Source: Streptomyces cavernae (GTDB lineage Bacteria; Actinomycetota; Actinomycetes; Streptomycetales; Streptomycetaceae). Taken from it: DNA of 64,000 nucleotides. The stretch is from the NCBI RefSeq assembly GCF_004023625.1, contig NZ_RPDJ01000031.1:1-64000 (forward strand). Reading direction: 5' to 3'. Below, one piece after another: positions 25,880 through 63,598 of this stretch. The notes beneath the pieces were generated by a model. The model ran no database searches and had not been told where the DNA came from. It was given only the letters and a program-made list of their open reading frames with translations. A program made the position numbers and the translations under genes. Positions within the stretch are counted from its first letter, which is position 1. Each line of letters begins with the position of its first letter.

Positions 25880-26035
25880 ACGACCCGCACACCTTTCCCC
25901 CGTAGACAGGGTGTTTGAAGAACACAGGGCAGATGCATAACACCTGCCCCACCGGTGACACCGGCGCAGACAGTTTGCTGTGTTCTCACCCGAGTGCGGA
26001 CCCCGGCCCCGGACTGACGGTTGTTCCGGTGCGGC

Positions 26036-27025
26036 TCAGTGCCGGTGGCCGTCCGCGGTTTCCGCGGCGGGCCGGTCCGGGGCCTCCGGTGTGGCCGGCG
26101 CCGCACCGGAGGCCCCGGACCGGACGGTGAAGGCCGCGGTGCGGACGGTCCCTTCGTGCTTGAAGTCGAGGAACAGGCGGTACGTGCCGCTGCTGGGCGC
26201 GGTCGCGGTGAAGGAGATGCCGGGGCCGGGCTCGGTCTTCCCGTCGCCGGGTTCGCCGCCCGGGTGGACGTGGAGGTAGGCGAGGTCGCCGGAGCGCAGT
26301 GCGACGAGGTGGCCGTAGGCGCCGAGGTAGGGCTGGAGGTCGGTGACGGGCTTGCCGTCCCGGGAGACGGTGAGCTTCAGTTCGCCGGCCCTGCCCGGGC
26401 GCAGGCCGCCGGTCAGCCGGACCTGATAGCCGTCGACGGTGGCGGTGCTGTTCGGCGCGGGGACGTCCCTCGGCTCGTAGTCGCCGGAGACCGCCAGGTC
26501 GGCGCCGAGGGTGAGGTTCTCGGCCCCCTTCCGCGCCGGGGTGAAGTCGGCGAAGACGCGGTAGCCGCCGGCGCGGGGCAGGTCGACAGGGGTGCTCCAG
26601 GTGCCGTCGGCGGCACGGGTGGGGTGCAGATGGCGATAGGTCGTCAGATCGCGTGAGGCGAGGATGAGGTGGAGTTCCTTGTCGTGTTCGCGCTGGTACG
26701 CGGTGACGGCGCGGCCGTCCGCGTCCCGGATGGCGAAGCGGAGGTCGGCGCGCTGTCCGGCCGTGACACGGGGTGTCCTGAGGTCGAGGGTGTAGCCCTG
26801 CTCGGAGATCTGCAGTCCGCCGGCGGCCGGGGCGGCCGACTCGTGCTCGGCGTGGCCTCCTCCTCCCTCCGGCGCCGGTGTGCGGGACGCCTCGCCGTGA
26901 CCGGTGTGGCGCGGGGACGCGCTGTCCGCGACGACGGGGTCGATGCCCTGCCCCACGCCGTACGCGGTACCGAACGTCGCGGCGAGCGTGGCGGCGAATG
27001 CGGTGATCTTCAGTGCGGTTTTCAT
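26036..27025 (-). CDS. Secreted copper-locus protein
   Basis: 329 aa with a signal peptide (KTALKITAFAATLAATFGTA). A His-rich spacer (HTGHGEAS, GGGGHAEHESA) precedes two beta-sandwich-like domains containing HLHPTR and YLHVHPGG, and the protein ends in ADGHRH. Histidine clusters and position opposite copZ-copA across a CsoR-type box indicate an envelope protein that binds or buffers copper. The family is common in Streptomyces copper loci but its exact function is not established. Confidence 0.78.
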   Translation of the reverse strand: MKTALKITAFAATLAATFGTAYGVGQGIDPVVADSASPRHTGHGEASRTPAPEGGGGHAEHESAAPAAGGLQISEQGYTLDLRTPRVTAGQRADLRFAIRDADGRAVTAYQREHDKELHLILASRDLTTYRHLHPTRAADGTWSTPVDLPRAGGYRVFADFTPARKGAENLTLGADLAVSGDYEPRDVPAPNSTATVDGYQVRLTGGLRPGRAGELKLTVSRDGKPVTDLQPYLGAYGHLVALRSGDLAYLHVHPGGEPGDGKTEPGPGISFTATAPSSGTYRLFLDFKHEGTVRTAAFTVRSGASGAAPATPEAPDRPAAETADGHRH

Positions 27026-29972: not shown

Positions 29973-31070
29973 TCAGCCGGTCGCCGGGGGCTTGCGCACC
30001 GATTCCGGGATCTCGGAGTCGGTGCGGATCGCCTCCCACAAGTCGGCCGCCTGCGGCTCGGCGGCCACGACCCGGTTCGGGTCGGTCTTGTCGTACTCGA
30101 CCGGGAGCATGATCGTGTCCATGCTCGACGGGTCGATGCCTTGCATGCTCTGCCCGAACTCGGCCAGAGCCGTGAGCGAGGCGAGAGTGGAGTCGGTGGT
30201 GAGCGCCTCGGTGAGCTCGTCGGCGATCCGGTAGGTCTTCGTGGGGCTGCCGAGCAGGTCCTGCTTCTTGATCTCGGAGAGCAGGGCGACCAGGAACTGC
30301 TGCTGGCGGCCGATGCGGCCGAGGTCGCTTCCGTCGCCGATGCCCTTGCGGGCCCGGACGAAGGCGAGCGACTCGGTGCCGTTCAGCCGGTTGGGGCCCG
30401 CCTGGAGATCGAGTCCGGCCGACGAGTCCCGGACGGGCTCGTCGACGGTGACCGTCACTCCGCCGATCGCGTCGACGATGTCCTTGAAACCGGCGAAGTC
30501 CACCTCGATCAGATGGTCGACCCGGACATCGCTCATCTGCTCGACGGTCTTCGCCGTACAGGCCGGCCCGAACTCGGCGTAGACCGAGTTGAACATCGTC
30601 CGTTCCCGGCCGGGGGCCACCGTCCCGTCGTCCCGCGTGCACTCGGGGCGGGTGACGAGCGTGTCGCGCGGGATGCTCACCGCGACCGCCTCGGTCCGCC
30701 CCCCGGTTATGTGCACCAGCAACGTGGTGTCGGAACGCGCGCCGCTCACCGCGGCCCCGTCGAGGGCCGCGTTGTCGCCGGCCCGGGTGTCCGAGCCGAG
30801 GACGAGCAGGTTCATGGCGTCCCCGGCCGCCTCCTCCCGCTTTGGCCGGTTCTTCTCGTCGCCCAGCGCCCGGTCCAGGTCGACCGCGCGGTCCTCCAGG
30901 TTGGAGTCGAGGCCCTCGTACAGCCACCAGGCCGTCCCACCACCGGCCAGCACCGCCGCCACCAGCCCCAACAGGATGCCCCGGCGCATCCGCCGCCCAC
31001 GGGAAGGGGCCTTCCGACGCTGCTGCCTGCGGGCCCGGCGCCCGCCGACAGGGGAGTGAGCGTGGCTCAT
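29973..31070 (-). CDS. LytR-CpsA-Psr (LCP) family cell-wall polymer ligase
   Basis: 365 aa. Short basic cytosolic N-terminus, one membrane anchor (GILLGLVAAVLAGGGTAWWL), then an extracytoplasmic LCP domain. It shows LLVLGSDTRAGD, RSDTTLLVHI, VSIPRDTLV and FVRARKGIGDGSDLGR, which hold the Arg/Asp residues that bind the polyprenyl-diphosphate head group. LCP enzymes move lipid-linked polymers onto peptidoglycan. The ATG (MSHAHSPV) follows GGAG closely; a longer frame is possible but lacks homology. Divergent from the UDP-sugar dehydrogenase/GT2 genes, so it may anchor their product. Confidence 0.92.
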   Translation of the reverse strand: MSHAHSPVGGRRARRQQRRKAPSRGRRMRRGILLGLVAAVLAGGGTAWWLYEGLDSNLEDRAVDLDRALGDEKNRPKREEAAGDAMNLLVLGSDTRAGDNAALDGAAVSGARSDTTLLVHITGGRTEAVAVSIPRDTLVTRPECTRDDGTVAPGRERTMFNSVYAEFGPACTAKTVEQMSDVRVDHLIEVDFAGFKDIVDAIGGVTVTVDEPVRDSSAGLDLQAGPNRLNGTESLAFVRARKGIGDGSDLGRIGRQQQFLVALLSEIKKQDLLGSPTKTYRIADELTEALTTDSTLASLTALAEFGQSMQGIDPSSMDTIMLPVEYDKTDPNRVVAAEPQAADLWEAIRTDSEIPESVRKPPATG

Positions 31071-31354
31071 TTCGCTCCGGTTCTCCGTCGTTCTTCGGAT
31101 GACGTCACCTTCGGTTTCGCAGTCGATGCGTAGAGCACCGAGGCGCGGGGAAGGGGGGATTGATTGAGACACAGAAGGCCCACCAATGGTTGTACGCCTT
31201 GTGGGTGACGAGAGGCACTTCCCGGAACTGGTATCACTCCTGTGAAGTTCTTGTTAGCATCCTCACTCTTGTCCAGTTTTTGAGAACTCAAGTTCGGACC
31301 CGCAGGCGGCCGAGGCTGTCGGGCCGGGGTCCGGACTGGGGTGGGGAAGGTCTC

Positions 31355-32626
31355 GTGAACAGAGCCACCACGGTGGATCTTGTCGTTGTCGGGCTCGGCT
31401 ACGTGGGGCTGCCCTTGGCCCGTTCCGCTGCTGCCGCCGGGCTCAAGGTGGCCGGTCTCGACCGCAGCCGTCGGGTCGTCGACGGCCTGAACGCCGGCCG
31501 CTCGCACGTGGACGACATCACCGACGCCGAGGTCCGCACGATGCTCGAGCAGGGCTTCAAGGCGGTCGACCGGGCCGACGTCATCTCCAGCGCCGCCGCG
31601 GTCGTCATCTGTGTACCCACGCCCCTGACCGAGCACGGCGCCCCCGACCTCGGGGCGGTGCACTCCGCGGTCGAGGACATCGCCACCCACCTCACTCCCG
31701 GAACGCTCGTCGTCCTCGAGTCGACCACGTACCCGGGCACCACCGAAGAAGTCGTCCGGCCCCGGCTGGAGGCCGGCGGCCTCAAGGTCGGCGAGGACTT
31801 CCACCTCGCCTTCTCCCCCGAGCGCATCGACCCGGGCAACCCCGAGTTCGGCCTGGAGAACACACCCAAGGTGGTCGGCGGCGTCACGGCGGACTGCACC
31901 AAGGCCGCGCGCGCCCTCTACGAGCGCTTCGTGGGGCGCGTCGTCGAGGCGAAGGGCACCCGCGAGGCCGAGATGGCCAAGCTCCTGGAGAACACCTACC
32001 GGCATGTGAACATCGCCCTCGTCAACGAGATGTCGATGTTCTGCCGCGAGATCGGTGTCGACCTGTGGGACGCGATCCGCTGCGCCTCCACCAAGCCGTT
32101 CGGTTTCGCCCCGTTCTACCCCGGCCCGGGCGTCGGCGGCCACTGCATACCCATCGACCCCAACTACCTGTCGTACAAGGTCCGCTCGCTCGGCATTCCG
32201 TTCCGCTTCGTGGAGCTGGCGCAGGAGATCAACCAGCGCATGCCCGTGCACGTGGTCAACCGGGCCGCCGACCTGCTGAACGACCACAGCAAGGCGATCC
32301 GGGGCTCCCGGATCCTGCTGCTCGGCGTGACGTACAAGCCCGACATCTCCGACCAGCGGGAGAGCCCGGCCCTCACGGTGGCCGAGAACCTTCGCGCACG
32401 CGGCGCCGAACTCGTCTACTTCGACCCGCGGGTCGAGAACTGGACGGTCGGCGGAGTGCCCGTCGAGCGGGTGGACGACTACCTGGCGGCGGCCGAGTCC
32501 GCGGACCTGACCATCCTGCTCCAGCCGCACCGGGAGATCGACCTGGCCCAGCTGGCCGACCGGACCCAGCTGCTGTTCGACACCCGAGGAAAATCGGCCG
32601 ACCATCCGCGGGTGGTCAAGCTGTGA
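31355..32626 (+). CDS. Nucleotide-sugar dehydrogenase (UDP-GlcNAc 6-dehydrogenase type)
   Basis: 423-aa UDP-glucose/GDP-mannose dehydrogenase-family enzyme, oxidising a nucleotide sugar at C6 to the uronate. Seen: NAD site VVGLGYVGLPLA, LESTTYPGTTEE, KLLENTYRHVNIALVNE, and the catalytic Cys264 in GPGVGGHCIPIDP. These motifs resemble WbpA-type UDP-GlcNAc dehydrogenases more than UDP-glucose dehydrogenases. GTG start with GGGGAAGG upstream. The stop overlaps the next GTG (GTGA). Supplies a uronic acid precursor to the coupled synthase. Confidence 0.92.
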   Translation: MNRATTVDLVVVGLGYVGLPLARSAAAAGLKVAGLDRSRRVVDGLNAGRSHVDDITDAEVRTMLEQGFKAVDRADVISSAAAVVICVPTPLTEHGAPDLGAVHSAVEDIATHLTPGTLVVLESTTYPGTTEEVVRPRLEAGGLKVGEDFHLAFSPERIDPGNPEFGLENTPKVVGGVTADCTKAARALYERFVGRVVEAKGTREAEMAKLLENTYRHVNIALVNEMSMFCREIGVDLWDAIRCASTKPFGFAPFYPGPGVGGHCIPIDPNYLSYKVRSLGIPFRFVELAQEINQRMPVHVVNRAADLLNDHSKAIRGSRILLLGVTYKPDISDQRESPALTVAENLRARGAELVYFDPRVENWTVGGVPVERVDDYLAAAESADLTILLQPHREIDLAQLADRTQLLFDTRGKSADHPRVVKL

Positions 32627-34809
32627 GTTCCGAGGATGAGTACATACCCGGCGCCGTCGACGGCGGACGCAGCGGGCACCGCAGGCGCAGGCAGCTGAAG
32701 GTCTCGTACTTCGTCTTCCTGGCCCTCGCGGCACTGATCGCCACCCGGCTCGATGCGGGCTCCCTGCATCTGTACTCCTTCGGTGCCATGGGTCTGCTGA
32801 CCCTGAAGATGTTCGGCGCCCTCTTCTACCGTCCGGCCAAGGCGGGGCGGGAGGAGCTGGAGTACCTCGAGCAGTCCTGGGTCACCGCGGTCATCCCGAT
32901 CTACAACGAGGACCCGGTGATGTTCGAGCAGGGCCTGCGCAGCCTCCTCGCGCAGAGCCGGCTGCCGAACGAGATCCACATCATCGACGACGCCAGCGCC
33001 GACTCAGGGGGCATCCGGGCGGCGAAGAAGATGCGCCGCGAGTTCGAGGCCAAGGGCGTGAAGTACACGGTCAGTGTGCAGCCCGAGAACAAGGGCAAGC
33101 GCGAGGCGCTCGCGCTGGGCTTCGAGGCGGCGCCGTACTCCGACATCTTCCTCTGTGTCGACTCCGACACGATCCTGTCCCGGGACACGGTCCGTGAGCT
33201 GCTGCTGCCACTGGCCGACGAGCGCGTCATGGCCTCCACCGGCATGGTGCTGGCGCTCAACCACGACAGCAACATCTTCACGCGTCTGCAGGACCTGCGG
33301 TACGGGAACTCGTTCCTGTTCGAGCGGGCCGCGTACTCGCGTCTGAAGTCGGTGCTGTGCTGTTGCGGCGCGCTCTCCGCCTACCGGGGATCGCTGGTCC
33401 GCAAGTACCTCCCGGACTTCCTCAACCAGCAGTTCCTGGGCAAGCCGGCCGTCTTCGGCGACGACCGCCGGATGACGAACTACTGCCTCATGGAGGGCCA
33501 GGTCGTCTTCCAGGAGACCGCCGTCGGCTACACGGCCGTGCCGGAGAAGCTGCCGCACTTCCTGCGCCAGCAGGTCCGCTGGAACAAGTCGTTCTTCCGC
33601 GAGTCCCTGTGGGCCTTCCGCAACCAGAAGAAGCTGCGGCCGGCCTTCTGGCTGACCTGCATGGAACTGGCGCTGTGGCTGGTCTTCGGCTCGGCGATGT
33701 TCTACTCGATGGTCATCCTGCCGATCATGCACCCCGACCGGTTCCTCAACCACATCGGGGACTACCTCGTCTTCATGGTGCTCATGGGGTACCTCCGCAA
33801 TGTGCGGTACCTCGACTTCCCCCGCCGGGGCATGGGCTTCATCAAGCGCTTCGGCATGTTCCTGCTCGCCCCGCTCTACGGCGTGATCCAGCTGACCCTG
33901 CTCACGCCGCTCCGCTTCTACGCCCTGGTCACCCTGAGCAAGGGCAGTTGGGGCACCCGTCAGGGCGGTGTCGAGGTGTCCGTCGCCGGGCACGAGGACG
34001 AAGTATCCGCGGTCTGGGAGGAAGAGGACCCGTACTCCGACCCGAAGGTCGGCGAGACGCTCCAGCTCATGCGTCTCGAGGGCCTGGCGCTGCGGCGGAC
34101 GACGCCTCCGCGGTCGGCCGTCATCAACGAACAGCCGCTCCCGCCCGGCATGGCGACCGTCGGCCATGTGCGGGAGTACGGCCGTACGGCTCCTCAGCAG
34201 CCGGTGACTTGGGGAGCCCCGGCCCAGGCGGCCGCCGGACAGCCCCCCAACGGGCAGTGGCAGCAGGGCGGAGCGCCTCGCCCCGGCCATGGGCAGGGGC
34301 CCGGCCCCGGGCCCGGTCAGGGCCAATACCCCGGGCAGGGTCAGTACCCGGCGGGCCAGGGACAGTACCCGGGGCAGGGGCAGCATCCCGGCCAGGGCCA
34401 GTACCCCGGCCAGGGGCAGTACCCGGGCCAGGGCCAGCACCCCGGCCAGGGCCAGGGGCAGTACCCGGGCCAGGGACAGTACCCGGGGCAGGGGCAGCAT
34501 CCCGGCCAGGGCCAGTACCCTGGCCAGGGCCAGGGGCAGTACCCGGGCCAGGGCCAGCACCCCGGCCAGGGCCAGCACCCCGGCCAGGGCCAGGGCCAGG
34601 GCCAGGGGCAGTACCCGGGCCAGGGACAGCACCCCGGCCAGGGCCAGCACCCGGGCCAAGGGCAGCACCCCGGCTGGCAGGGACCCGGGCAGCAGCAATG
34701 GCAGGCCGGCCAGCACGACCCGTACCAGACGGGCGTCGACACCCGTCAGGCCGAGTACGTGGATCCCCACCTGCATCCGGGCAACGGGCAAGGCGGCTGG
34801 CGGCAGTGA
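32623..34809 (+). CDS. Hyaluronan-synthase-like GT2 membrane glycosyltransferase with Gly/Gln repeat tail
   Basis: 728 aa. Two N-terminal membrane segments, a GT2 catalytic domain (VIPIYNEDP, CVDSDT, GDDRRMTN) with the processive-synthase motif QQVRW near residue 320, then several C-terminal membrane helices (from about residue 345). These resemble HasA/chitin/cellulose synthases that polymerise and export in one step. Residues from about 555 are disordered; from about 570 to 690 they consist of GQGQYP and GQGQHP hexapeptides. GTG start overlaps the dehydrogenase stop. Product probably a beta-linked polymer containing a uronic acid. Confidence 0.92.
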   Translation: MSSEDEYIPGAVDGGRSGHRRRRQLKVSYFVFLALAALIATRLDAGSLHLYSFGAMGLLTLKMFGALFYRPAKAGREELEYLEQSWVTAVIPIYNEDPVMFEQGLRSLLAQSRLPNEIHIIDDASADSGGIRAAKKMRREFEAKGVKYTVSVQPENKGKREALALGFEAAPYSDIFLCVDSDTILSRDTVRELLLPLADERVMASTGMVLALNHDSNIFTRLQDLRYGNSFLFERAAYSRLKSVLCCCGALSAYRGSLVRKYLPDFLNQQFLGKPAVFGDDRRMTNYCLMEGQVVFQETAVGYTAVPEKLPHFLRQQVRWNKSFFRESLWAFRNQKKLRPAFWLTCMELALWLVFGSAMFYSMVILPIMHPDRFLNHIGDYLVFMVLMGYLRNVRYLDFPRRGMGFIKRFGMFLLAPLYGVIQLTLLTPLRFYALVTLSKGSWGTRQGGVEVSVAGHEDEVSAVWEEEDPYSDPKVGETLQLMRLEGLALRRTTPPRSAVINEQPLPPGMATVGHVREYGRTAPQQPVTWGAPAQAAAGQPPNGQWQQGGAPRPGHGQGPGPGPGQGQYPGQGQYPAGQGQYPGQGQHPGQGQYPGQGQYPGQGQHPGQGQGQYPGQGQYPGQGQHPGQGQYPGQGQGQYPGQGQHPGQGQHPGQGQGQGQGQYPGQGQHPGQGQHPGQGQHPGWQGPGQQQWQAGQHDPYQTGVDTRQAEYVDPHLHPGNGQGGWRQ
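34290..34690 (+). repeat. Coding minisatellite for GQGQYP/GQGQHP hexapeptides
   Basis: About 22 near-identical 18-nt units (type CCGGGCCAGGGCCAG plus CAC or TAC) in frame in the glycosyltransferase C-terminus. Units alternate Tyr and His and are interrupted by short GQGQ and AGQGQ variants, as in slippage-prone arrays. A Gly/Gln/Pro/Tyr tail resembles low-complexity domains that self-associate. Confidence 0.9.
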
Positions 34810-34861
34810 CCGCCGGCGACCGCCCCGACGGCCGCCAGGATTGACGGCCGCAGGTACGACG

Positions 34862-34908
34862 GAAGGGGGCGGGCCGCACGGATCATGTCCGTGCGGCCCG
34901 CCCCCTTC
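34862..34908. terminator. Strong bidirectional terminator
   Basis: Perfect 21-bp stem beginning GAAGGGGGCGGGCCGC with a 5-nt TCATG loop, between the convergent glycosyltransferase and deacetylase genes. Confidence 0.88.
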
Positions 34909-35006
34909 GTGTTCGGGTCTCCGTCTGCACCGGCTTCCCGGCTTCTCCAGACGGCCTCTTCACGAATTCTTGCGGCCCGCACACGGGTACGGGCCGCCGT
35001 GCCCTG

Positions 35007-36494
35007 TCAGGTGTAGTAGGCCATGGCTTCCTCGACCGTCACGACGGGCATGTCCCGGTCCTTGATCGCCTGCATCAGCGTTGACAGGCCGGCCTTGCCG
35101 ATCTCCGTGCTGGTCGCGGGAGTCCCGTCGACGACCTTGTGCAGACAGAGGATGAGCCAGTCACCGCTGTTGGCGCAGCGGTCGAGTCTGCCGCCCGCGC
35201 CCGTCACCTTCGACAGCGCCGTACCGCCGATTCCCGTACCGTCGTTGATGCCGGTCAGCGCCTTCAGGCGGTAGGGCATCGCCGGGGCGAAGGACTCGAT
35301 CGTCTCGGAGATGATCGACCTGGCCGTGGTGAAGTGGCGGCTCGCGATCAGGTCCACCGGGACACCGTCGGTGGTCTTCTGGAACGCACCGTGCGGATAG
35401 GCGAAGTGCTCACTCTTGAAGCCGTTGGACACCAGCCACTCGCGCAGCTTGCGGAAGTCGGTGTCCGCCTGCTCCGCGGTGAGTTTGGGATAGCTGGCCG
35501 TGTGGGTGGCGTTCGCGTAGGAGTGCCCCGCCATCTCCCAGCCGGAGAAGTCCTGCATCGAACGCATCTGGTCGATCGTCAGGAAGTTCCCGGTCCCGAT
35601 CGCGTCGGCGATGTTGTAGACCGTACCGGGGAAGCCGAAGGCGTCCATCACCGGCCGGCCGATGTCGTGGATGGACTTGTGGGAGTCGTCGAAGGTGATC
35701 GAGACGACGCCCTTGGGGAAGACGGAGGAGGTGTCGGGTATCGCCTCGACCGCCTGCAGCCGGTAGGTCACCGCGCCGCCCGCGTTGTCGTACACGGCGA
35801 ACGACATGTCGGTGAAGCCGGTCTTGGTGGAGGGGTTGCCGGCGGCCGAGATCGAGTACGTGCCGGCGGCGCTGGTGACGTCGGCCCACTGCAGGTGGAC
35901 CGTCACCCATTCTCCCGACTGGACGTAGTTGGCCGCCGTCGCGGAGTGGGCGTGGAACGTCCAGGAGAAGTTGTTCGCGAGGGAACCGCTGCCCAGGTAG
36001 AAGACCAGCTTCGACAGGTTGGCCACGTCATCGACCCGGAAGATCAGCCTGAGCATCTTGCCGGTCAGGTTCATCGCCGTCATACCGGTCTTGCGTATGT
36101 ACGACTGCTTGCCCGTACCGTTCGTGGTCACCCGGACCGCCTGCGTACCGCGGACGAAGACGGTCTTGTCGTTCGCCTCGGACGAGGCGGTGCCGGCGCC
36201 TCCGGCGGTCCAGCCGTGCCCCGCCTGGAACTGCTGGCTCCAGGTGGCTCGGCGCTGCTTGGGGCGCCGCCCGGACGGCGCGTACAGCGGAGGCGTGGCG
36301 AGCCCTCCGATTCCCCCTGCGGCGGCGGGGGCGGCCTGGGCCTTTGTGGCCAGATTGCCCGCCCAGGCGCCACCGGCCGCCATGGCGAGGCCGCCGGCCC
36401 CGCCAAGGAACAGCGCGGAACGCCGGCTCACCACTGCTTTCTCGCGCTCCGCCGCAGCAGCGCGGCTGCGGGCGCGGGTCCCCCTCTTGCTCAC
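35007..36494 (-). CDS. Tat-exported polysaccharide deacetylase (NodB-like)
   Basis: 495 aa. Twin-arginine signal SRRSALFLGGAGG (about residues 23-35), a beta-rich middle region resembling a carbohydrate-binding domain, then a NodB-type domain with TFDDSHKS (catalytic Asp and metal Asp), GHSYANATH (metal His) and FAYPHG. CE4-family members remove N- or O-acetyl groups from glycans. GTG start with GGAG, 2 nt after the stop of the GH16-like gene, so both are co-transcribed. Possibly modifies the polymer made by the adjacent synthase. Confidence 0.88.
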   Translation of the reverse strand: MSKRGTRARSRAAAAEREKAVVSRRSALFLGGAGGLAMAAGGAWAGNLATKAQAAPAAAGGIGGLATPPLYAPSGRRPKQRRATWSQQFQAGHGWTAGGAGTASSEANDKTVFVRGTQAVRVTTNGTGKQSYIRKTGMTAMNLTGKMLRLIFRVDDVANLSKLVFYLGSGSLANNFSWTFHAHSATAANYVQSGEWVTVHLQWADVTSAAGTYSISAAGNPSTKTGFTDMSFAVYDNAGGAVTYRLQAVEAIPDTSSVFPKGVVSITFDDSHKSIHDIGRPVMDAFGFPGTVYNIADAIGTGNFLTIDQMRSMQDFSGWEMAGHSYANATHTASYPKLTAEQADTDFRKLREWLVSNGFKSEHFAYPHGAFQKTTDGVPVDLIASRHFTTARSIISETIESFAPAMPYRLKALTGINDGTGIGGTALSKVTGAGGRLDRCANSGDWLILCLHKVVDGTPATSTEIGKAGLSTLMQAIKDRDMPVVTVEEAMAYYT

Positions 36495-36496
36495 CC

Positions 36497-37933
36497 TTAC
36501 TCCTGAACCGTGTCGAAGTAGTTCATGCCGTTGTCGGTGAAGCCCTTGACTGCGGTGTCGACTGCGTTTTCCGACAAGGCTTTGTTCTCGTTGTAGTACA
36601 GCCAGTCAACTTTCATGTCCCAGGTTCGGTCACCCTTGAAGGGCAGGTCTATGAACCAGTGATTGAAGTTGATCGACATTCCCGCTCGGGGAGCGTACTT
36701 GCCGTTGCTGCTGAACAGTTTCTTTCCGTCCAGCCAGTAGGTGACGACATCGTCCTCGACGGTGATCATCACGGTGTGCCAGCCGGCGAGACTCTTGTTC
36801 GTCGTGTTGTAGACACGGTCGTTGGTCTCGTGGTCGTACCAGGTGACGGTGTCGAGCTTGGGTCCGAGCCGTCCCCAACCGCCGTTGGGCATGTACTCGT
36901 TGTCGAGCTCGCTGTAGGTCTTGCCCTTGCCGCCGATCGTGTAGAAGGTCTGGTTGACGTGGTCGCCCTTCTCACCCGTCGTCGGCTTGTCGCTGAACAG
37001 GACCCGGGCGGCGTAGGTGCCTTCGCGGAACTTGTCCGAGGAACTGCCCAGACTGGCCTGTTTCGTACCGGCCTCGGTGCCGTCCGTGCTGGCGCGCAGC
37101 TGGAGCACCTGGCCGTCGCCCTCGGCGTCCTCCTCGGCGGGGAAGCTCACGCCGTCGGGAGTCCAGGTGTCCTCGATCCCCGGGCCGCCCTTGCTGCTGC
37201 GGACCAGCCAGCCATGCTTGAACAGGGCCGGGTCCTTGGCACCCACGTAGTTGAAGTTGTCGAAGACGACTCCCGCCGGAGCGGTCGGCACCTCGGTGGG
37301 CGCGGTGGAGGCCTTCGGGGCCTTCTTCTCACTGTCCTTGGTGGTGCCATCCGGTTCCTCGCCCCAGGCGAGCAGTCCCCGCTTGTACGCGGTCACCTTC
37401 TTCGACTGTTTGAAGCTCGTCATCTCGCCGTCGAAGGAGCGGTCGTTGGACTGCTTCATCTCCTTGTGGTCGGTCCGGAAGAGCTGCAGATCGATACCAC
37501 GGCTGTTGGCGCTGGGCTTCAGGGTGCCGGCGTCGTCGGTGAACCGGATCTCGAGATAGTGGTCCGCGGTGTCGGTGGCGTCGTCCATGGCGACGACGGT
37601 GCCGGCGATGTTCGAGCAGCCGATCTCGGCCTGCACACAGTTGAAGGCGTACGAGCCGGCACCGTCCGCGGTGAAGTAGTAGCGCAGCGACACATCGCTG
37701 AGCGGCAGCGCCTTCTTCGTCTCGTTGAAGATCTCCAGCGCCGGCTTCGCCACCGTGGCCTTGGCGGAAGTCTGCGTCCGGTAGCGGATCGTGAGCTCCG
37801 CCGGGTCCGGGTTCGCCGCACGCCACACCGGATAGAGCGCCGTCCCGCCGGCGCCGACCGCTCCGATGACGAGCAACAATTTGATCTTGGGCCATACCCG
37901 ACGTCGGGGAGGGCGACGACGTGCAGACGCCAC
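36497..37933 (-). CDS. Exported CBM3-GH16-like protein
   Basis: 478 aa. Membrane anchor or uncleaved signal at the N-terminus (WPKIKLLLVIGAVGAGGTALY). A family-3 cellulose-binding-like module follows (LTIRYRTQT, LPLSDVSLRYYFTADG, about residues 45-165), then a concanavalin-type domain. That domain carries ELDNE near residue 342, matching the GH16 catalytic ExDxE pattern, with YWLDGKKLF after it. Suggests a glucan or glycan endo-hydrolase held at the envelope by a glucan-binding module. GTG start with GAGGAG. First gene of the unit with the deacetylase. Confidence 0.8.
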   Translation of the reverse strand: MASARRRPPRRRVWPKIKLLLVIGAVGAGGTALYPVWRAANPDPAELTIRYRTQTSAKATVAKPALEIFNETKKALPLSDVSLRYYFTADGAGSYAFNCVQAEIGCSNIAGTVVAMDDATDTADHYLEIRFTDDAGTLKPSANSRGIDLQLFRTDHKEMKQSNDRSFDGEMTSFKQSKKVTAYKRGLLAWGEEPDGTTKDSEKKAPKASTAPTEVPTAPAGVVFDNFNYVGAKDPALFKHGWLVRSSKGGPGIEDTWTPDGVSFPAEEDAEGDGQVLQLRASTDGTEAGTKQASLGSSSDKFREGTYAARVLFSDKPTTGEKGDHVNQTFYTIGGKGKTYSELDNEYMPNGGWGRLGPKLDTVTWYDHETNDRVYNTTNKSLAGWHTVMITVEDDVVTYWLDGKKLFSSNGKYAPRAGMSINFNHWFIDLPFKGDRTWDMKVDWLYYNENKALSENAVDTAVKGFTDNGMNYFDTVQE

Positions 37934-38320: not shown

Positions 38321-39250
38321 TCACGCGCGGGACTTGTGCGTCGCGGCGAACTCGTCGGCGGCCTCGAGGTCGAAGTCGCCGTGGTCGCTGCCGAGGCCTT
38401 GCGCCACCAGTGCCGCCGCGGCACAGCCGAGTACCGCGGCCTCGCGCGGACTGCGGCCCAGCCCCACGCCGCGCAGGAATCCGGCCGAGAACGCGTCGCC
38501 GCATCCTGTGGTGTCCACCACGTCGATCGCGAAGGCGGGCACGGGTTCGGTGCCTTCCGCGGTCACCACGACCGCGCCGTCACCACCGCATGTGACCGCC
38601 ACGACACCGGCCCCGGCACCGAGCAGCTTCTTCGCGCCCGCCACCAGGTCGTCCTCACCGGTGAAGCCGAGGACCTGATCGTCGTTGGGCAGCAGGTGGT
38701 CGACGTACGGCAGCGCGGCCGCGATCTGCTCGAAACTGCCGAGCACCCCGGGCGCGAGCAGGTCCACGGAGGTGACCACGCCGTGTTCCTTGGCGTACGA
38801 CAGGATGCGCGCGGCGACGTCGACTCCGATCAGTTCCGGGCCGCCGAGGTGGAGGTGCGTGGCTTCCGCGATGGCGTCCCAGGGCACGTCGTCGAGCCCG
38901 TAGGTGATGTTGGCGCCGAGCAGGTGCAGTGAGGGCCGGTCGCCGTTGGGCCGGATGGGCAGCACGCTCGCGGAGGTGGGGGTGTCGGCGCGGCGGACGA
39001 GGAACCCGGTGTCGATGCCGGCCTTGCCCAGCAGTTGGACCAGCATGTCGCCGGTGGGGTCGGTACCGATCGCCCCGGCGCTGCGCACCTCGGCACCCAG
39101 CTTGGCCAGGGTGAGCGCGGTCCCGCCGGCCGTTCCGGCGGCGGTCATCCTGATGTCCTCCACCAGCGTCGCGCCCTGGCCCTCGGGTATGGCCTCCACC
39201 GGCCGCACCAGCACGTCCAGCACGTGCACGCCCATCGTGACGACCTTCAT
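38321..39250 (-). CDS. PfkB-family carbohydrate kinase
   Basis: 309-aa ribokinase-fold kinase. Substrate-side GTAGGTALTLAKLGAEV, and the catalytic/anion-hole motif DTTGCGDAFSAGF near residue 250. Phosphorylates a sugar or sugar acid. ATG overlaps the aldolase-gene stop by ATGA. The kinase-aldolase pair points to a degradation pathway for a deoxy- or pentose-type sugar in which the kinase makes the phosphorylated substrate for class II aldolase cleavage. Exact sugar unknown. Confidence 0.9.
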   Translation of the reverse strand: MKVVTMGVHVLDVLVRPVEAIPEGQGATLVEDIRMTAAGTAGGTALTLAKLGAEVRSAGAIGTDPTGDMLVQLLGKAGIDTGFLVRRADTPTSASVLPIRPNGDRPSLHLLGANITYGLDDVPWDAIAEATHLHLGGPELIGVDVAARILSYAKEHGVVTSVDLLAPGVLGSFEQIAAALPYVDHLLPNDDQVLGFTGEDDLVAGAKKLLGAGAGVVAVTCGGDGAVVVTAEGTEPVPAFAIDVVDTTGCGDAFSAGFLRGVGLGRSPREAAVLGCAAAALVAQGLGSDHGDFDLEAADEFAATHKSRA

Positions 39251-39933
39251 CGGCTCTCCTCCTGCACGGGTGGCACGGGTTGGGTGGTGCCGTAGTTGCG
39301 CGCGATCGCGGCCTCGATCACCGCGAGCTGCTGTTGTTCGTCCAGGACACGGGGCTCACCGAGGGCGGCCGCGCGCTGGTAGACACCGCACGCCCACTCG
39401 AGCAGCAGGGCGTGCTCGACCGCCTTGTCGAGGGTCGGCGCGTGGGTGAGCGCACCGTGGTTCGCCATCAGTGCGGCGCTGCGGCCCTCGAGCGCGTTCA
39501 GTACGGACTCGGCGAGCGCCGGAGTGCCGAAGGTGGCGTACGGCGCCACTCGCACGGTGCCACCCAGGGCGAGCAACTGGTAATGGATACACGGCAGTTC
39601 GTCGAGGACGCAGGAGAGTGCGGTGGCCATGGGCGCATGGGTGTGGACGACCGCGCCGGCGTCGTAGCGCTGGTAGACGCCGAGATGCAGCTCCAGTTCC
39701 GAGGTCGGCCGCAGGGTCCCGGCCACCATGTCGCCGTCGAGGTCGACCACCGTCACCTGGTCCGCGGTCAGTTCGGCGAGGACCGCGCCGGTCGCGGTGA
39801 TCGCAACCCGCTCCCCCACGCGCACGCTGACGTTTCCGGCCGTGCCGATGAGCAGGCCCGCGGCCCCCAGCCGGCGACAGGCGTCCGCCACGGCGGCCCG
39901 ATCCTGACCCAGCACGGAGCTTGAGTCGGTCAT
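39247..39933 (-). CDS. Class II aldolase/adducin-family protein (fuculose-phosphate aldolase-like)
   Basis: 228-aa zinc-dependent aldolase. GTAGNVSVR near the start, metal ligands in VVHTHAP and a third His in MANHGAL. Cleaves a ketose or acid phosphate into dihydroxyacetone phosphate or glycolaldehyde-type products. First gene of the two-gene operon. Its promoter faces a TetR gene across an operator-like repeat. Confidence 0.9.
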   Translation of the reverse strand: MTDSSSVLGQDRAAVADACRRLGAAGLLIGTAGNVSVRVGERVAITATGAVLAELTADQVTVVDLDGDMVAGTLRPTSELELHLGVYQRYDAGAVVHTHAPMATALSCVLDELPCIHYQLLALGGTVRVAPYATFGTPALAESVLNALEGRSAALMANHGALTHAPTLDKAVEHALLLEWACGVYQRAAALGEPRVLDEQQQLAVIEAAIARNYGTTQPVPPVQEESR

Positions 39934-62440: not shown

Positions 62441-63598
62441 TCAGCTCACGGTGACGGCCGGCTCCCCCGGCCCGACGCCGTCGTTCTGCATCTGTTCGGC
62501 GATCTTCATGGCCTCTTCGATGAGGGTCTCGACGATCTTCGATTCAGCGACGGTCTTGATGACCTCGCCCTTCACGAAGATCTGCCCCTTGCCGTTGCCG
62601 GAGGCGACCCCCAGGTCCGCCTCCCGCGCCTCCCCCGGCCCGTTGACGACACAGCCCATGACCGCGACGCGCAGTGGCACTTCCATGCCTTCGAGGCCGG
62701 CCGTGACCTCGTCGGCCAGCTTGTAGACGTCGACCTGGGCCCGTCCGCAGGAGGGACAGGAGACGATCTCCAGTCGGCGCTGCCGCAGACCGAGGGCCTG
62801 GAGGATCTGGATGCCGACCTTGACCTCCTCCACTGGAGGCGCGGACAGCGAGACGCGGATGGTGTCGCCGATGCCCTCGGCGAGCAGCGCCCCGAAGGCG
62901 ACGGCGGACTTGATGGTGCCCTGGAACGCCGGTCCGGCCTCGGTGACACCGAGGTGCAGCGGGTAGTCGCACTGCGCCGCCAGCTGCCGGTACGCCTCGA
63001 TCATCACCACCGGGTCGTTGTGCTTGACCGAGATCTTGATGTCCCGGAAGCCGTGTTCCTCGAAGAGGGACGCCTCCCACAGCGCCGACTCGACGAGTGC
63101 CTCGGGCGTCGCCTTCCCGTACTTCTTCAGCAGCCGCTTGTCGAGCGAGCCGGCGTTCACCCCGATACGGATCGGGGTGCCCGCGTCGGAGGCGGCGCGC
63201 GCGATCTCCTTGACCTTGTCGTCGAACTGCTTGATGTTGCCGGGGTTCACCCGGACGGCAGCGCAGCCCGCGTCGATGGCCGCGAAGACGTACTTGGGCT
63301 GGAAGTGGATGTCCGCGATGACCGGGATCTGTGACTTGCGCGCGATCGTGGCGAGCGCGTCCGCGTCGTCCTGCGTGGGGCAGGCGACCCGGACGATCTG
63401 GCAGCCGGACGCGGTGAGTTCCGCGATCTGCTGCAGCGTCGCGCCGATGTCCGAGGTACGGGTCGTCGTCATCGACTGCACCGATACGGGTGCCCCGCCC
63501 CCGACGGGCACCGGCCCGACCTGGATCCGCCGCGACACGCGCCGCTCGGCGATCGGCCGCGCGGGCGCCTCGGGGACGCCCAGGGATACGGCGGTCAT
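62441..63598 (-). CDS. ispG: 4-hydroxy-3-methylbut-2-enyl-diphosphate synthase (flavodoxin)
   Basis: 385-aa [4Fe-4S] enzyme of the MEP pathway, converting MEcPP to HMBPP. N-terminal TIM barrel ([13 protein letters not shown]) and C-terminal cluster domain with [10 protein letters not shown] and [13 protein letters not shown] start, 4 nt after the hpnH stop. Cooperates with the adjacent dxs. Confidence 0.96.

What the first reader, a model, noticed from the sequence alone, without database searches (positions are those of the whole stretch)
29973..37933. Possible uncharacterised uronic-acid exopolysaccharide system
A WbpA-like UDP-sugar dehydrogenase overlaps a HasA-like synthase. Divergent or convergent neighbours are an LCP ligase, a Tat-exported NodB deacetylase and a CBM3-GH16 protein. 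Together they could make, trim, deacetylate and wall-anchor a glycosaminoglycan-like polymer distinct from the known Streptomyces cellulose-like and PNAG-like glycans.
Basis: inference. Interest (0 to 1): 0.65.

Follow-up and report, generated by a model that had tools for sequence, protein, structure and literature searches.

The report
Hyaluronan-synthase-like polysaccharide cassette in Streptomyces
A block of four neighbouring genes, kept together in dozens of Streptomyces species, looks like a complete kit for making, exporting, deacetylating and trimming an acidic amino-sugar polymer related to hyaluronan, and no description of it turned up in the open papers searched.

Summary
The real unit is four genes: UGD (31355-32626 +) overlapping GT2 (32623-34809 +), and, convergent, a CBM3-GH16-like/NodB pair (37933-35007 -). 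In 45 distinct loci with at least 5 kb on each side of GT2, UGD is kept in 44, CBM3-GH16 in 44, NodB in 41, the LCP ligase in only 7. The unit sits in several chromosomal settings and three gene orders, so the linkage is not merely inherited neighbourhood.

GT2 has hyaluronan-synthase (HAS) motifs, and HAS are its only PDB matches, but a tree does not join it with the two HAS tested. UGD is of the UDP-N-acetylhexosamine type, unlike the UDP-glucose-type dehydrogenases beside most other HAS-like synthases that had one. Paralogues of the CBM3-GH16 protein lie beside a GH20 hexosaminidase or a BadF-family kinase-like gene in 13 of 14 loci examined, which points to an amino-sugar substrate.

Best reading: an HAS-type synthase makes an amino-sugar/N-acetylhexosaminuronate polymer that is partly deacetylated and trimmed outside the cell. 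Wall anchoring is weakly supported. The uronate's identity and its use by GT2 are inferred. New variant of a known kind.

The parts
29973..31172 (-). LCP (LytR-CpsA-Psr) glycopolymer transferase with one N-terminal membrane helix; optional neighbour; true start possibly downstream of 31172
   Evidence: PF03816 7.9e-44, TIGR00350 179.5 bits; hydropathy peak at residues 66-84; homologue beside 7 of 45 distinct evaluable loci
31146..31350 (+). upstream region of UGD with short conserved blocks (GGGTTGTAC..GTGACAAG; TTGTTA), possible promoter/operator
   Evidence: alignment of 49 upstream regions, window included; blocks kept in most, but not in L064, L082 and L085; kept in relocated copies such as L070-L073; no Rfam match above gathering score
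31355..32626 (+). UGD: nucleotide-sugar 6-dehydrogenase of the UDP-HexNAc (WecC/CapO/WbpA/TviB) type
   Evidence: TIGR03026 422.8 bits; WecC 255 vs TuaD 112 bits; best PDB Cap5O 3.1e-64; GVGGHCIPIDP and ENTYRHVN in 48 of 48 homologues found among 49 loci
32623..34809 (+). GT2: hyaluronan-synthase-like membrane glycosyltransferase; catalytic and membrane part about 32623-34131, then a G/Q/P-rich PGQGQ(Y/H) repeat tail
   Evidence: PF13641; PDB matches at E<=0.001 are five hyaluronan-synthase sequences; DSD, GDDR, QQVRWNKSFFRE, WGTR; hydropathy peaks and tail
34865..34906 (.). GC-rich inverted repeat between the convergent gene pairs, likely bidirectional terminator
   Evidence: read directly in the sequence
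35007..36494 (-). NodB-like (CE4) N-deacetylase with Tat-type signal and an N-terminal beta-rich, CBM-like domain
   Evidence: PF01522 2e-9; HfsH 50.3 and IcaB 31.3 bits, both under cut-off; 6dq3 5.7e-5; D269, D270, H324, H331 invariant in 18 of 18 rows; low-confidence model with weak CBM-type matches
36497..37933 (-). membrane-anchored or secreted CBM3 plus GH16-like enzyme, same strand and 2 bp upstream of NodB
   Evidence: PF00942 2.5e-20; CBM3 PDB matches, best 3.2e-31; ExDxE in 45 of 45 homologues found; PF00722 in 2 of 16 members; weak model: strong CBM3 hits, weak GH16 and alginate-lyase hits; hydropathy peak at 19-37

Best explanation
A synthase-dependent exopolysaccharide cassette. 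UGD oxidises a UDP-N-acetylhexosamine (most likely UDP-GlcNAc) at C6 to a UDP-N-acetylhexosaminuronate. The HAS-type GT2, whose start overlaps the end of UGD, takes this acid and UDP-GlcNAc in one active site, links them into a chain and passes the chain through its own membrane channel. Outside, the Tat-exported NodB enzyme removes some N-acetyl groups, and the membrane-tethered CBM3-GH16 enzyme cuts or trims the chain. In a minority of strains, including this one, a neighbouring LCP ligase may attach the polymer to the wall. Shown here: the gene unit, the enzyme families and the conserved motifs. Inferred: donor identity, co-polymerisation, deacetylation target, trimming and anchoring.
For: Linkage: of 45 distinct evaluable loci UGD is kept in 44, CBM3-GH16 in 44, NodB in 41, across several chromosomal settings and three gene orders, Catenulispora included. 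UGD and GT2 overlap. GT2: the only PDB matches are HAS; residues that contact GlcA and the acceptor in Chlorella-virus HAS (K177, R341, W342, C267, S345, R303, R348; passages of PMC12987647 and PMC11750622) align with K159, R319, W320, C246, S323, R282, R326 (mapping mine, chain numbering one higher than the papers'). UGD: WecC 255 vs TuaD 112 bits; the reverse for four dehydrogenases of other HAS-like loci (L109 and L110 TuaD 360, L092 TuaD 426, L090 PRK15057 499.5). GH16 substrate: of 14 full-length 36-39% paralogue loci examined (of 19 such among the places), 9 carry GH20 and 4 a BadF-type gene; of 20 further loci 8 carry GH20 plus SBP.
Against: The tree separates the cassette GT2 from Chlorella and Xenopus HAS, and NodC branches nearer (93/78); long branches were flagged, and no streptococcal HasA was included. 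Most HAS contact residues also occur in NodC. H174 and C297 of Chlorella HAS are N156 and A276 here. A relative (L108) has the same QQVRWNKSFFRES and LCCCG stretches beside a UDP-glucose-type dehydrogenase, so GT2 sequence does not itself show a donor switch. UGD reaches no equivalog cut-off; a 60% relative on a Streptomyces anulatus plasmid sits among genes that do not look like polysaccharide genes, and the own genome has another HexNAc-type dehydrogenase on C50. L067, L073, L082 and L085 lack NodB. The His spacing of NodB motif 2 is HxxxxxxH, not the usual HxxxH (usual form recalled), and its model was poor. The GH20-linked paralogues share only 36-39% with the window protein, and 5 loci with only the GH16 part show neither GH20 nor the kinase.
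Confidence: 0.5

Rival explanations
1. True hyaluronan-like polymer: the dehydrogenase in fact oxidises UDP-glucose, and GT2 makes GlcNAc-GlcA.
For: HAS motifs and HAS-only PDB matches. The sister cassettes L109 and L110 (GT2 42-45%, CBM3-GH16 49-50%) carry a UDP-glucose-type dehydrogenase.
Against: The cassette UGD is on the HexNAc side by family scores and by the ENTYR and GGHCIP motifs in 48 of 48 homologues found.
Confidence: 0.15
2. Chitin-like homopolymer: GT2 is a NodC/chitin-synthase-like enzyme using UDP-GlcNAc only, NodB makes it chitosan-like, and the UGD product goes elsewhere.
For: NodC is the top NCBIfam model for GT2 (176.8 bits, cut-off 550; I do not know whether that library holds a HasA model), and NodC branches nearer than the two HAS. 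NodB and the GH20-linked GH16 paralogues fit.
Against: UGD overlaps GT2 and is kept in 44 of 45 distinct evaluable loci, relocated ones included. GDDR, RWNKSFFRE and WGTR differ from the NodC rows' GEDR, RWARSTFRD or RWARSTYRD, and WLSR.
Confidence: 0.17
3. Homopolymer of an N-acetylhexosaminuronate: GT2 uses only the UGD product.
For: One dehydrogenase and one synthase are enough. A related homopolymer, beta-1,4 GlcNAc3NAcA, is reported as the teichuronic-acid-like glycan of Streptomyces antibioticus (passages of PMC13274773).
Against: Chlorella HAS turns over UDP-GlcA only poorly without a primer (passages of PMC12987647). GH16 paralogues sit with GH20 hexosaminidases.
Confidence: 0.1
4. A teichuronic-acid-type wall glycopolymer attached to wall teichoic acid or peptidoglycan by LCP, not a free exopolysaccharide.
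For: LCP beside this locus and 7 of 45 distinct evaluable loci, once on the other side of GT2 (L085). Streptomyces teichuronic-acid-like polymers carry N-acetylated uronates.
Against: 38 of 45 distinct evaluable loci show no LCP homologue in the stretch held. The utr pathway also uses aminotransferase, oxidase, N-acetyltransferase and epimerase genes, of which none is among the cassette genes scanned. An HAS-type channel is not known to need a lipid-linked intermediate (recalled).
Confidence: 0.08

Closest known systems
Class I hyaluronan synthase with UDP-glucose dehydrogenase (hasA-hasB type)
   Same: Single-polypeptide GT2 with HAS motifs next to a nucleotide-sugar dehydrogenase; donor- and acceptor-contact residues mostly kept
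   Different: Dehydrogenase of HexNAc instead of UDP-glucose type; exported deacetylase and GH16-like enzyme added; not joined with Chlorella and Xenopus HAS in the tree; G/Q-rich tail
NodC/NodB chitooligosaccharide system
   Same: GT2 relative and NodB-type deacetylase
   Different: GT2 motifs differ (GDDR, KSFFRE, WGTR); uronate dehydrogenase present; deacetylase carries a Tat-type signal
Streptomyces MatAB (PNAG) and CslA-GlxA (cellulose-like)
   Same: Membrane GT2 exopolysaccharide systems; MatB joins a GT2 and a CE4 domain (passages of PMC5972031 and PMC11022532)
   Different: No sugar-nucleotide dehydrogenase is mentioned in the passages I saw; the own genome has candidates for such systems at other places
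Streptomyces utr teichuronic-acid-like pathway
   Same: UDP-GlcNAc-derived N-acetylated uronate made with a UDP-sugar dehydrogenase (passages of PMC13274773)
   Different: Built onto wall teichoic acid by separate glycosyltransferases, with further amino-sugar genes; no HAS-type synthase mentioned in the passages I saw

Membership tests
Class I hyaluronan synthase (HAS) | GT2 core with DxD, GDDR, QxxRW and WGTR gating-loop motifs | tested here: met
   GDDR, RWNKSFFRE and WGTR in 47 of 47 GT2 found by tblastn among 49 loci (L064 and L070 were missed there but have GT2); alignment with Chlorella and Xenopus HAS
Class I hyaluronan synthase (HAS) | Residues contacting GlcA carboxylate and acceptor conserved | tested here: inconclusive
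   K177, R341, W342, C267, S345, R303, R348 equivalents kept; H174 and C297 not. Several also occur in NodC, so weakly discriminating
Class I hyaluronan synthase (HAS) | Groups with characterised HAS in a tree | tested here: not met
   Cassette 100/100 clade, sister to a GT2 in a phage-like stretch; NodC nearer than the two HAS; partial HAS sequences, no streptococcal HasA, long branches
Class I hyaluronan synthase (HAS) | Makes GlcNAc-GlcA polymer from UDP-GlcNAc and UDP-GlcA | not testable with these tools
   needs enzyme assay
UDP-HexNAc 6-dehydrogenase (WecC/CapO/WbpA/TviB) | Family scores above those of UDP-glucose dehydrogenase models | tested here: met
   WecC 255.3, archaeal UDP-ManNAc DH 255.6, TviB 187.3, AglM 167.6, TuaD 111.8, PRK15057 40.7 bits; no equivalog cut-off reached
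UDP-HexNAc 6-dehydrogenase (WecC/CapO/WbpA/TviB) | GGHC catalytic motif and ENT(Y/F)R.VN helix as in Cap5O and the Pyrococcus enzyme | tested here: met
   48 of 48 homologues found; PDB alignments
CE4 / NodB polysaccharide deacetylase | Motif 1 TFDD, metal-binding His pair, motif 5 LxLH | tested here: inconclusive
   DD, H324, H331 and LCLH invariant in 18 of 18 aligned rows (L075 has AFDD), but His spacing is HxxxxxxH instead of HxxxH (usual spacing recalled); model poor
GH16 | ExDxE catalytic motif in a beta-jelly-roll | tested here: inconclusive
   Motif in 45 of 45 homologues found; PF00722 in only 2 of 16 members, other weak families in more; low-confidence model with weak hits to GH16 enzymes and to an alginate lyase
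LCP-attached wall glycopolymer system | LCP transferase as a constant partner | tested here: not met
   7 of 45 distinct evaluable loci

The most novel reading that the evidence does not exclude
An HAS-type enzyme that evolved to use a UDP-N-acetylhexosaminuronate in place of UDP-GlcA, giving an all-amino-sugar hyaluronan analogue (GlcNAc alternating with GlcNAcA or ManNAcA) that becomes zwitterionic after partial deacetylation, with its own dedicated GH16-like hydrolase; the sister cassettes with a UDP-glucose-type dehydrogenase and no NodB would be the GlcA version.
Probability: 0.35. Interest if true: 0.78.

Novelty: new variant of a known kind. Interest (0 to 1): 0.56.

Why it matters
It would add a further exopolysaccharide system to Streptomyces beside the cellulose-like and PNAG-like glycans, with possible consequences for hyphal adhesion, pellet shape and phage attachment. 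If the donor switch is real, it would be a natural route to hyaluronan-like polymers with a different acid sugar, and the sister cassettes give a ready comparison for finding which residues let an HAS-type enzyme take one uronate and not another. The GH16-like branch could be a new enzyme tool.

Tried and rejected
Rejected: LCP as a core member (7 of 45 distinct evaluable loci). Rejected: the pfkB and copA genes beside the cassette as members (no match at E<=1e-15 in any of 56 loci). Rejected: a known structured RNA (5 Rfam matches at E<=1, all under gathering score; 3 of them lie on the terminator-like hairpin). Little gain: AlphaFold models of the NodB and CBM3-GH16 proteins (mean pLDDT 54.1 and 61.4). 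Only the CBM3 part gave strong fold matches; the rest matched GH16 enzymes and an alginate lyase weakly. The NodB fold search gave CBM-type and unrelated hits, the best a viral turret protein. Donor-pocket comparison of 53 cassette GT2 with 6 sister GT2: 74 differing positions, none decisive, and L108 contradicts a simple switch.

Rows dropped: 10 of 56 loci with less than 5 kb on one side of GT2, and L107 as a copy of L081. The window itself is not in those counts. In some searches tblastn with the full GT2 query missed GT2 in L064 and L070; it is there. For paralogue neighbourhoods I fetched 20 of the 34 places listed, and 20 of the 24 places at about 490-670 bits (two of the other four were already held, G838 and G836:C58 were left out).

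Papers: searches listed no description of this cassette. Not all matching papers were listed (20 of 137, 15 of 29, 15 of 46; some searches listed 1, 2 and 10; two searches found none), and the library holds open-licence papers only. I saw term-found passages of PMC12987647, PMC11750622, PMC7831098, PMC13274773, PMC11022532 and PMC5972031, and of the rest only search listings.
Full report
What is there. The window lies on contig C24 of a 10.4 Mb genome that is Streptomyces by its named relatives (inferred). Five genes match the finding: LCP transferase (29973-31172 -), nucleotide-sugar dehydrogenase UGD (31355-32626 +), GT2 synthase (32623-34809 +), NodB-like deacetylase (35007-36494 -) and a CBM3 protein with a GH16-like C-terminal domain (36497-37933 -). 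UGD and GT2 overlap by the GTGA of start and stop. The CBM3-GH16 and NodB genes are a tight same-strand pair. A GC-rich hairpin lies between the two convergent pairs.

The unit. In a sample of 101 genomes of the genus, a GT2 of 90-100% identity occurs in 4 (own, G009, G091, G099), and the three others have UGD, NodB and CBM3-GH16 in the same order. A scan of one genome per species brought 48 loci, 46 of them at 72% identity or more: 45 from Streptomyces and one from Catenulispora pinisilvae. In 394 genomes of the family, 39 match at E<=1e-60; I count 18 Streptomyces genomes (own included) and 5 of another genus (g14) at over 850 bits. Of 56 loci tested, 46 have at least 5 kb on both sides of GT2; removing one duplicate leaves 45, with UGD in 44, CBM3-GH16 in 44, NodB in 41 and LCP in 7. 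The one without UGD (L081) also has a truncated GT2, with a stop codon in the matched stretch. The cassette sits beside dxs and/or a thiolase-like gene in most, beside rpoA and glmM in others, beside copper and pfkB genes here, and in other surroundings in L082 and L085. Of the 46, CBM3-GH16 lies downstream and convergent in 38, upstream and divergent in 6, downstream and co-directional in 1, absent in 1. Short upstream blocks are kept in most copies.

The synthase. GT2 matches only hyaluronan synthases in the PDB at E<=0.001. It keeps most residues that contact the donor carboxylate and the acceptor in Chlorella-virus HAS, as seen in passages of two structure papers. Against NodC it has GDDR, RWNKSFFRE and WGTR instead of GEDR, RWARST(F/Y)RD and WLSR. 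Yet the tree does not join it with Chlorella and Xenopus HAS; its sister is a GT2 in a phage-like stretch (95/90), and NodC is nearer than the two HAS, with long-branch warnings. So it may work like an HAS by anatomy; membership among characterised HAS is not shown.

The dehydrogenase. Scores favour UDP-ManNAc/UDP-GlcNAc dehydrogenases (WecC 255, TviB 187) over TuaD (112) and the UDP-glucose model PRK15057 (41); no equivalog cut-off is reached. The motifs GVGGHCIPIDP and ENTYRHVN, alike in type to Cap5O and the Pyrococcus enzyme, are in 48 of 48 homologues found among 49 loci. By motif, the dehydrogenases beside other HAS-like GT2 are of UDP-glucose type in seven loci: L090 and L091 (Lactococcus and Enterococcus plasmids), L092 and L093 (Streptomyces plasmids), L108, L109 and L110; family scores for L090, L092, L109 and L110 agree. 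The exception is L039, where a 32% GT2 sits by a HexNAc-type enzyme. Others, such as L037, L038, L040, L041, L094 and L111, show no dehydrogenase motif in the stretch held.

The sister cassettes. L109, L110, L111, L152 and L153 hold a 42-47% GT2 with a co-directional CBM3-GH16 gene of 46-53%. No NodB match was found in the fetched stretch of any; L109 and L110 have a divergent UDP-glucose-type dehydrogenase. L108 has GT2 and such a dehydrogenase but no CBM3-GH16. This fits a change of uronate between the groups, but numbers are small, and L108 shares donor-loop stretches with the cassette.

The GH16-like enzyme. ExDxE is in 45 of 45 homologues found. Of 14 loci examined with full-length paralogues of 36-39% identity, 9 carry a GH20 hexosaminidase, 4 a BadF-family gene with an RpiR regulator, 1 neither (families called on L119 and L123; others by tblastn). 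Five loci with only the GH16 part have neither. Of 20 more loci, 8 have GH20 plus SBP, 5 a different GT2 (6 with L118), 2 the sister GT2, 1 the cassette (the Catenulispora locus again) and 4 none of these, of which two are short contig stretches. The substrate is therefore probably an amino-sugar polymer (inference).

Deacetylase and LCP. NodB carries a twin-arginine signal and invariant D269, D270, H324, H331, with unusual His spacing. LCP is optional.

Verdict.

Noticed in passing
window 1-64000 (G000:C24) and G000:C14:163652-227545: The window is an almost identical copy of part of contig C14; by the alignment coordinates the window has about 107 bp more near 26022-26128 and one other 1-bp difference. 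Assembly duplicate or very large repeat.
   Followed up: partly
L142 3788-5299; L037 9198-10574: HAS-like GT2 genes on Streptomyces phage Kromp (gene 79; 36.6% identity) and in a phage-like stretch of genome G022 (46%).
   Followed up: partly
L090 1105-3522; L091 3681-6098: Lactococcus and Enterococcus faecium plasmids carry a UDP-glucose-type dehydrogenase and an HAS-like GT2 side by side, near a VanZ-family gene.
   Followed up: partly
L119, L120, L122, L125, L127-L129, L135, L137, L147-L149, L156-L159, L162: CBM3-GH16 paralogues in clusters with GH20 hexosaminidase, mostly with solute-binding proteins: candidate uptake loci for an amino-sugar polymer.
   Followed up: partly
L118 4276-9042; L145, L146, L150, L151, L154: A different GT2 (weak match to an XrtP-associated model) sits beside a CBM3-GH16 gene, in L118 also with NodB: possible synthase swap.
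   Followed up: partly
window 38321-39933 -: Overlapping pfkB-type kinase and class II aldolase; best NCBIfam hits are haloarchaeal ribose-1-phosphate kinase and ribulose-1-phosphate aldolase, both under cut-off.
   Followed up: no
window about 34300-34700: GT2 ends in a long PGQGQ(Y/H) repeat tail; G/P/Q/Y-rich tails occur in the Streptomyces homologues read, but not in Catenulispora (L082).
   Followed up: partly
L081 and L107 (same locus); L144: Apparently decaying copies: UGD not found and GT2 truncated with a stop in L081/L107; CBM3-GH16 with an in-frame TAG and no GT2 or UGD match in L144.
   Followed up: no
L082 11004-12269: In Catenulispora a membrane protein with a putative esterase domain follows the CBM3-GH16 gene, and NodB was not found.
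   Followed up: no
G000:C25:59189-60058 and 62628-63266: Another GH16-like stretch of the own genome lies about 2.6 kb from a 667-aa GT2 reading frame.
   Followed up: no
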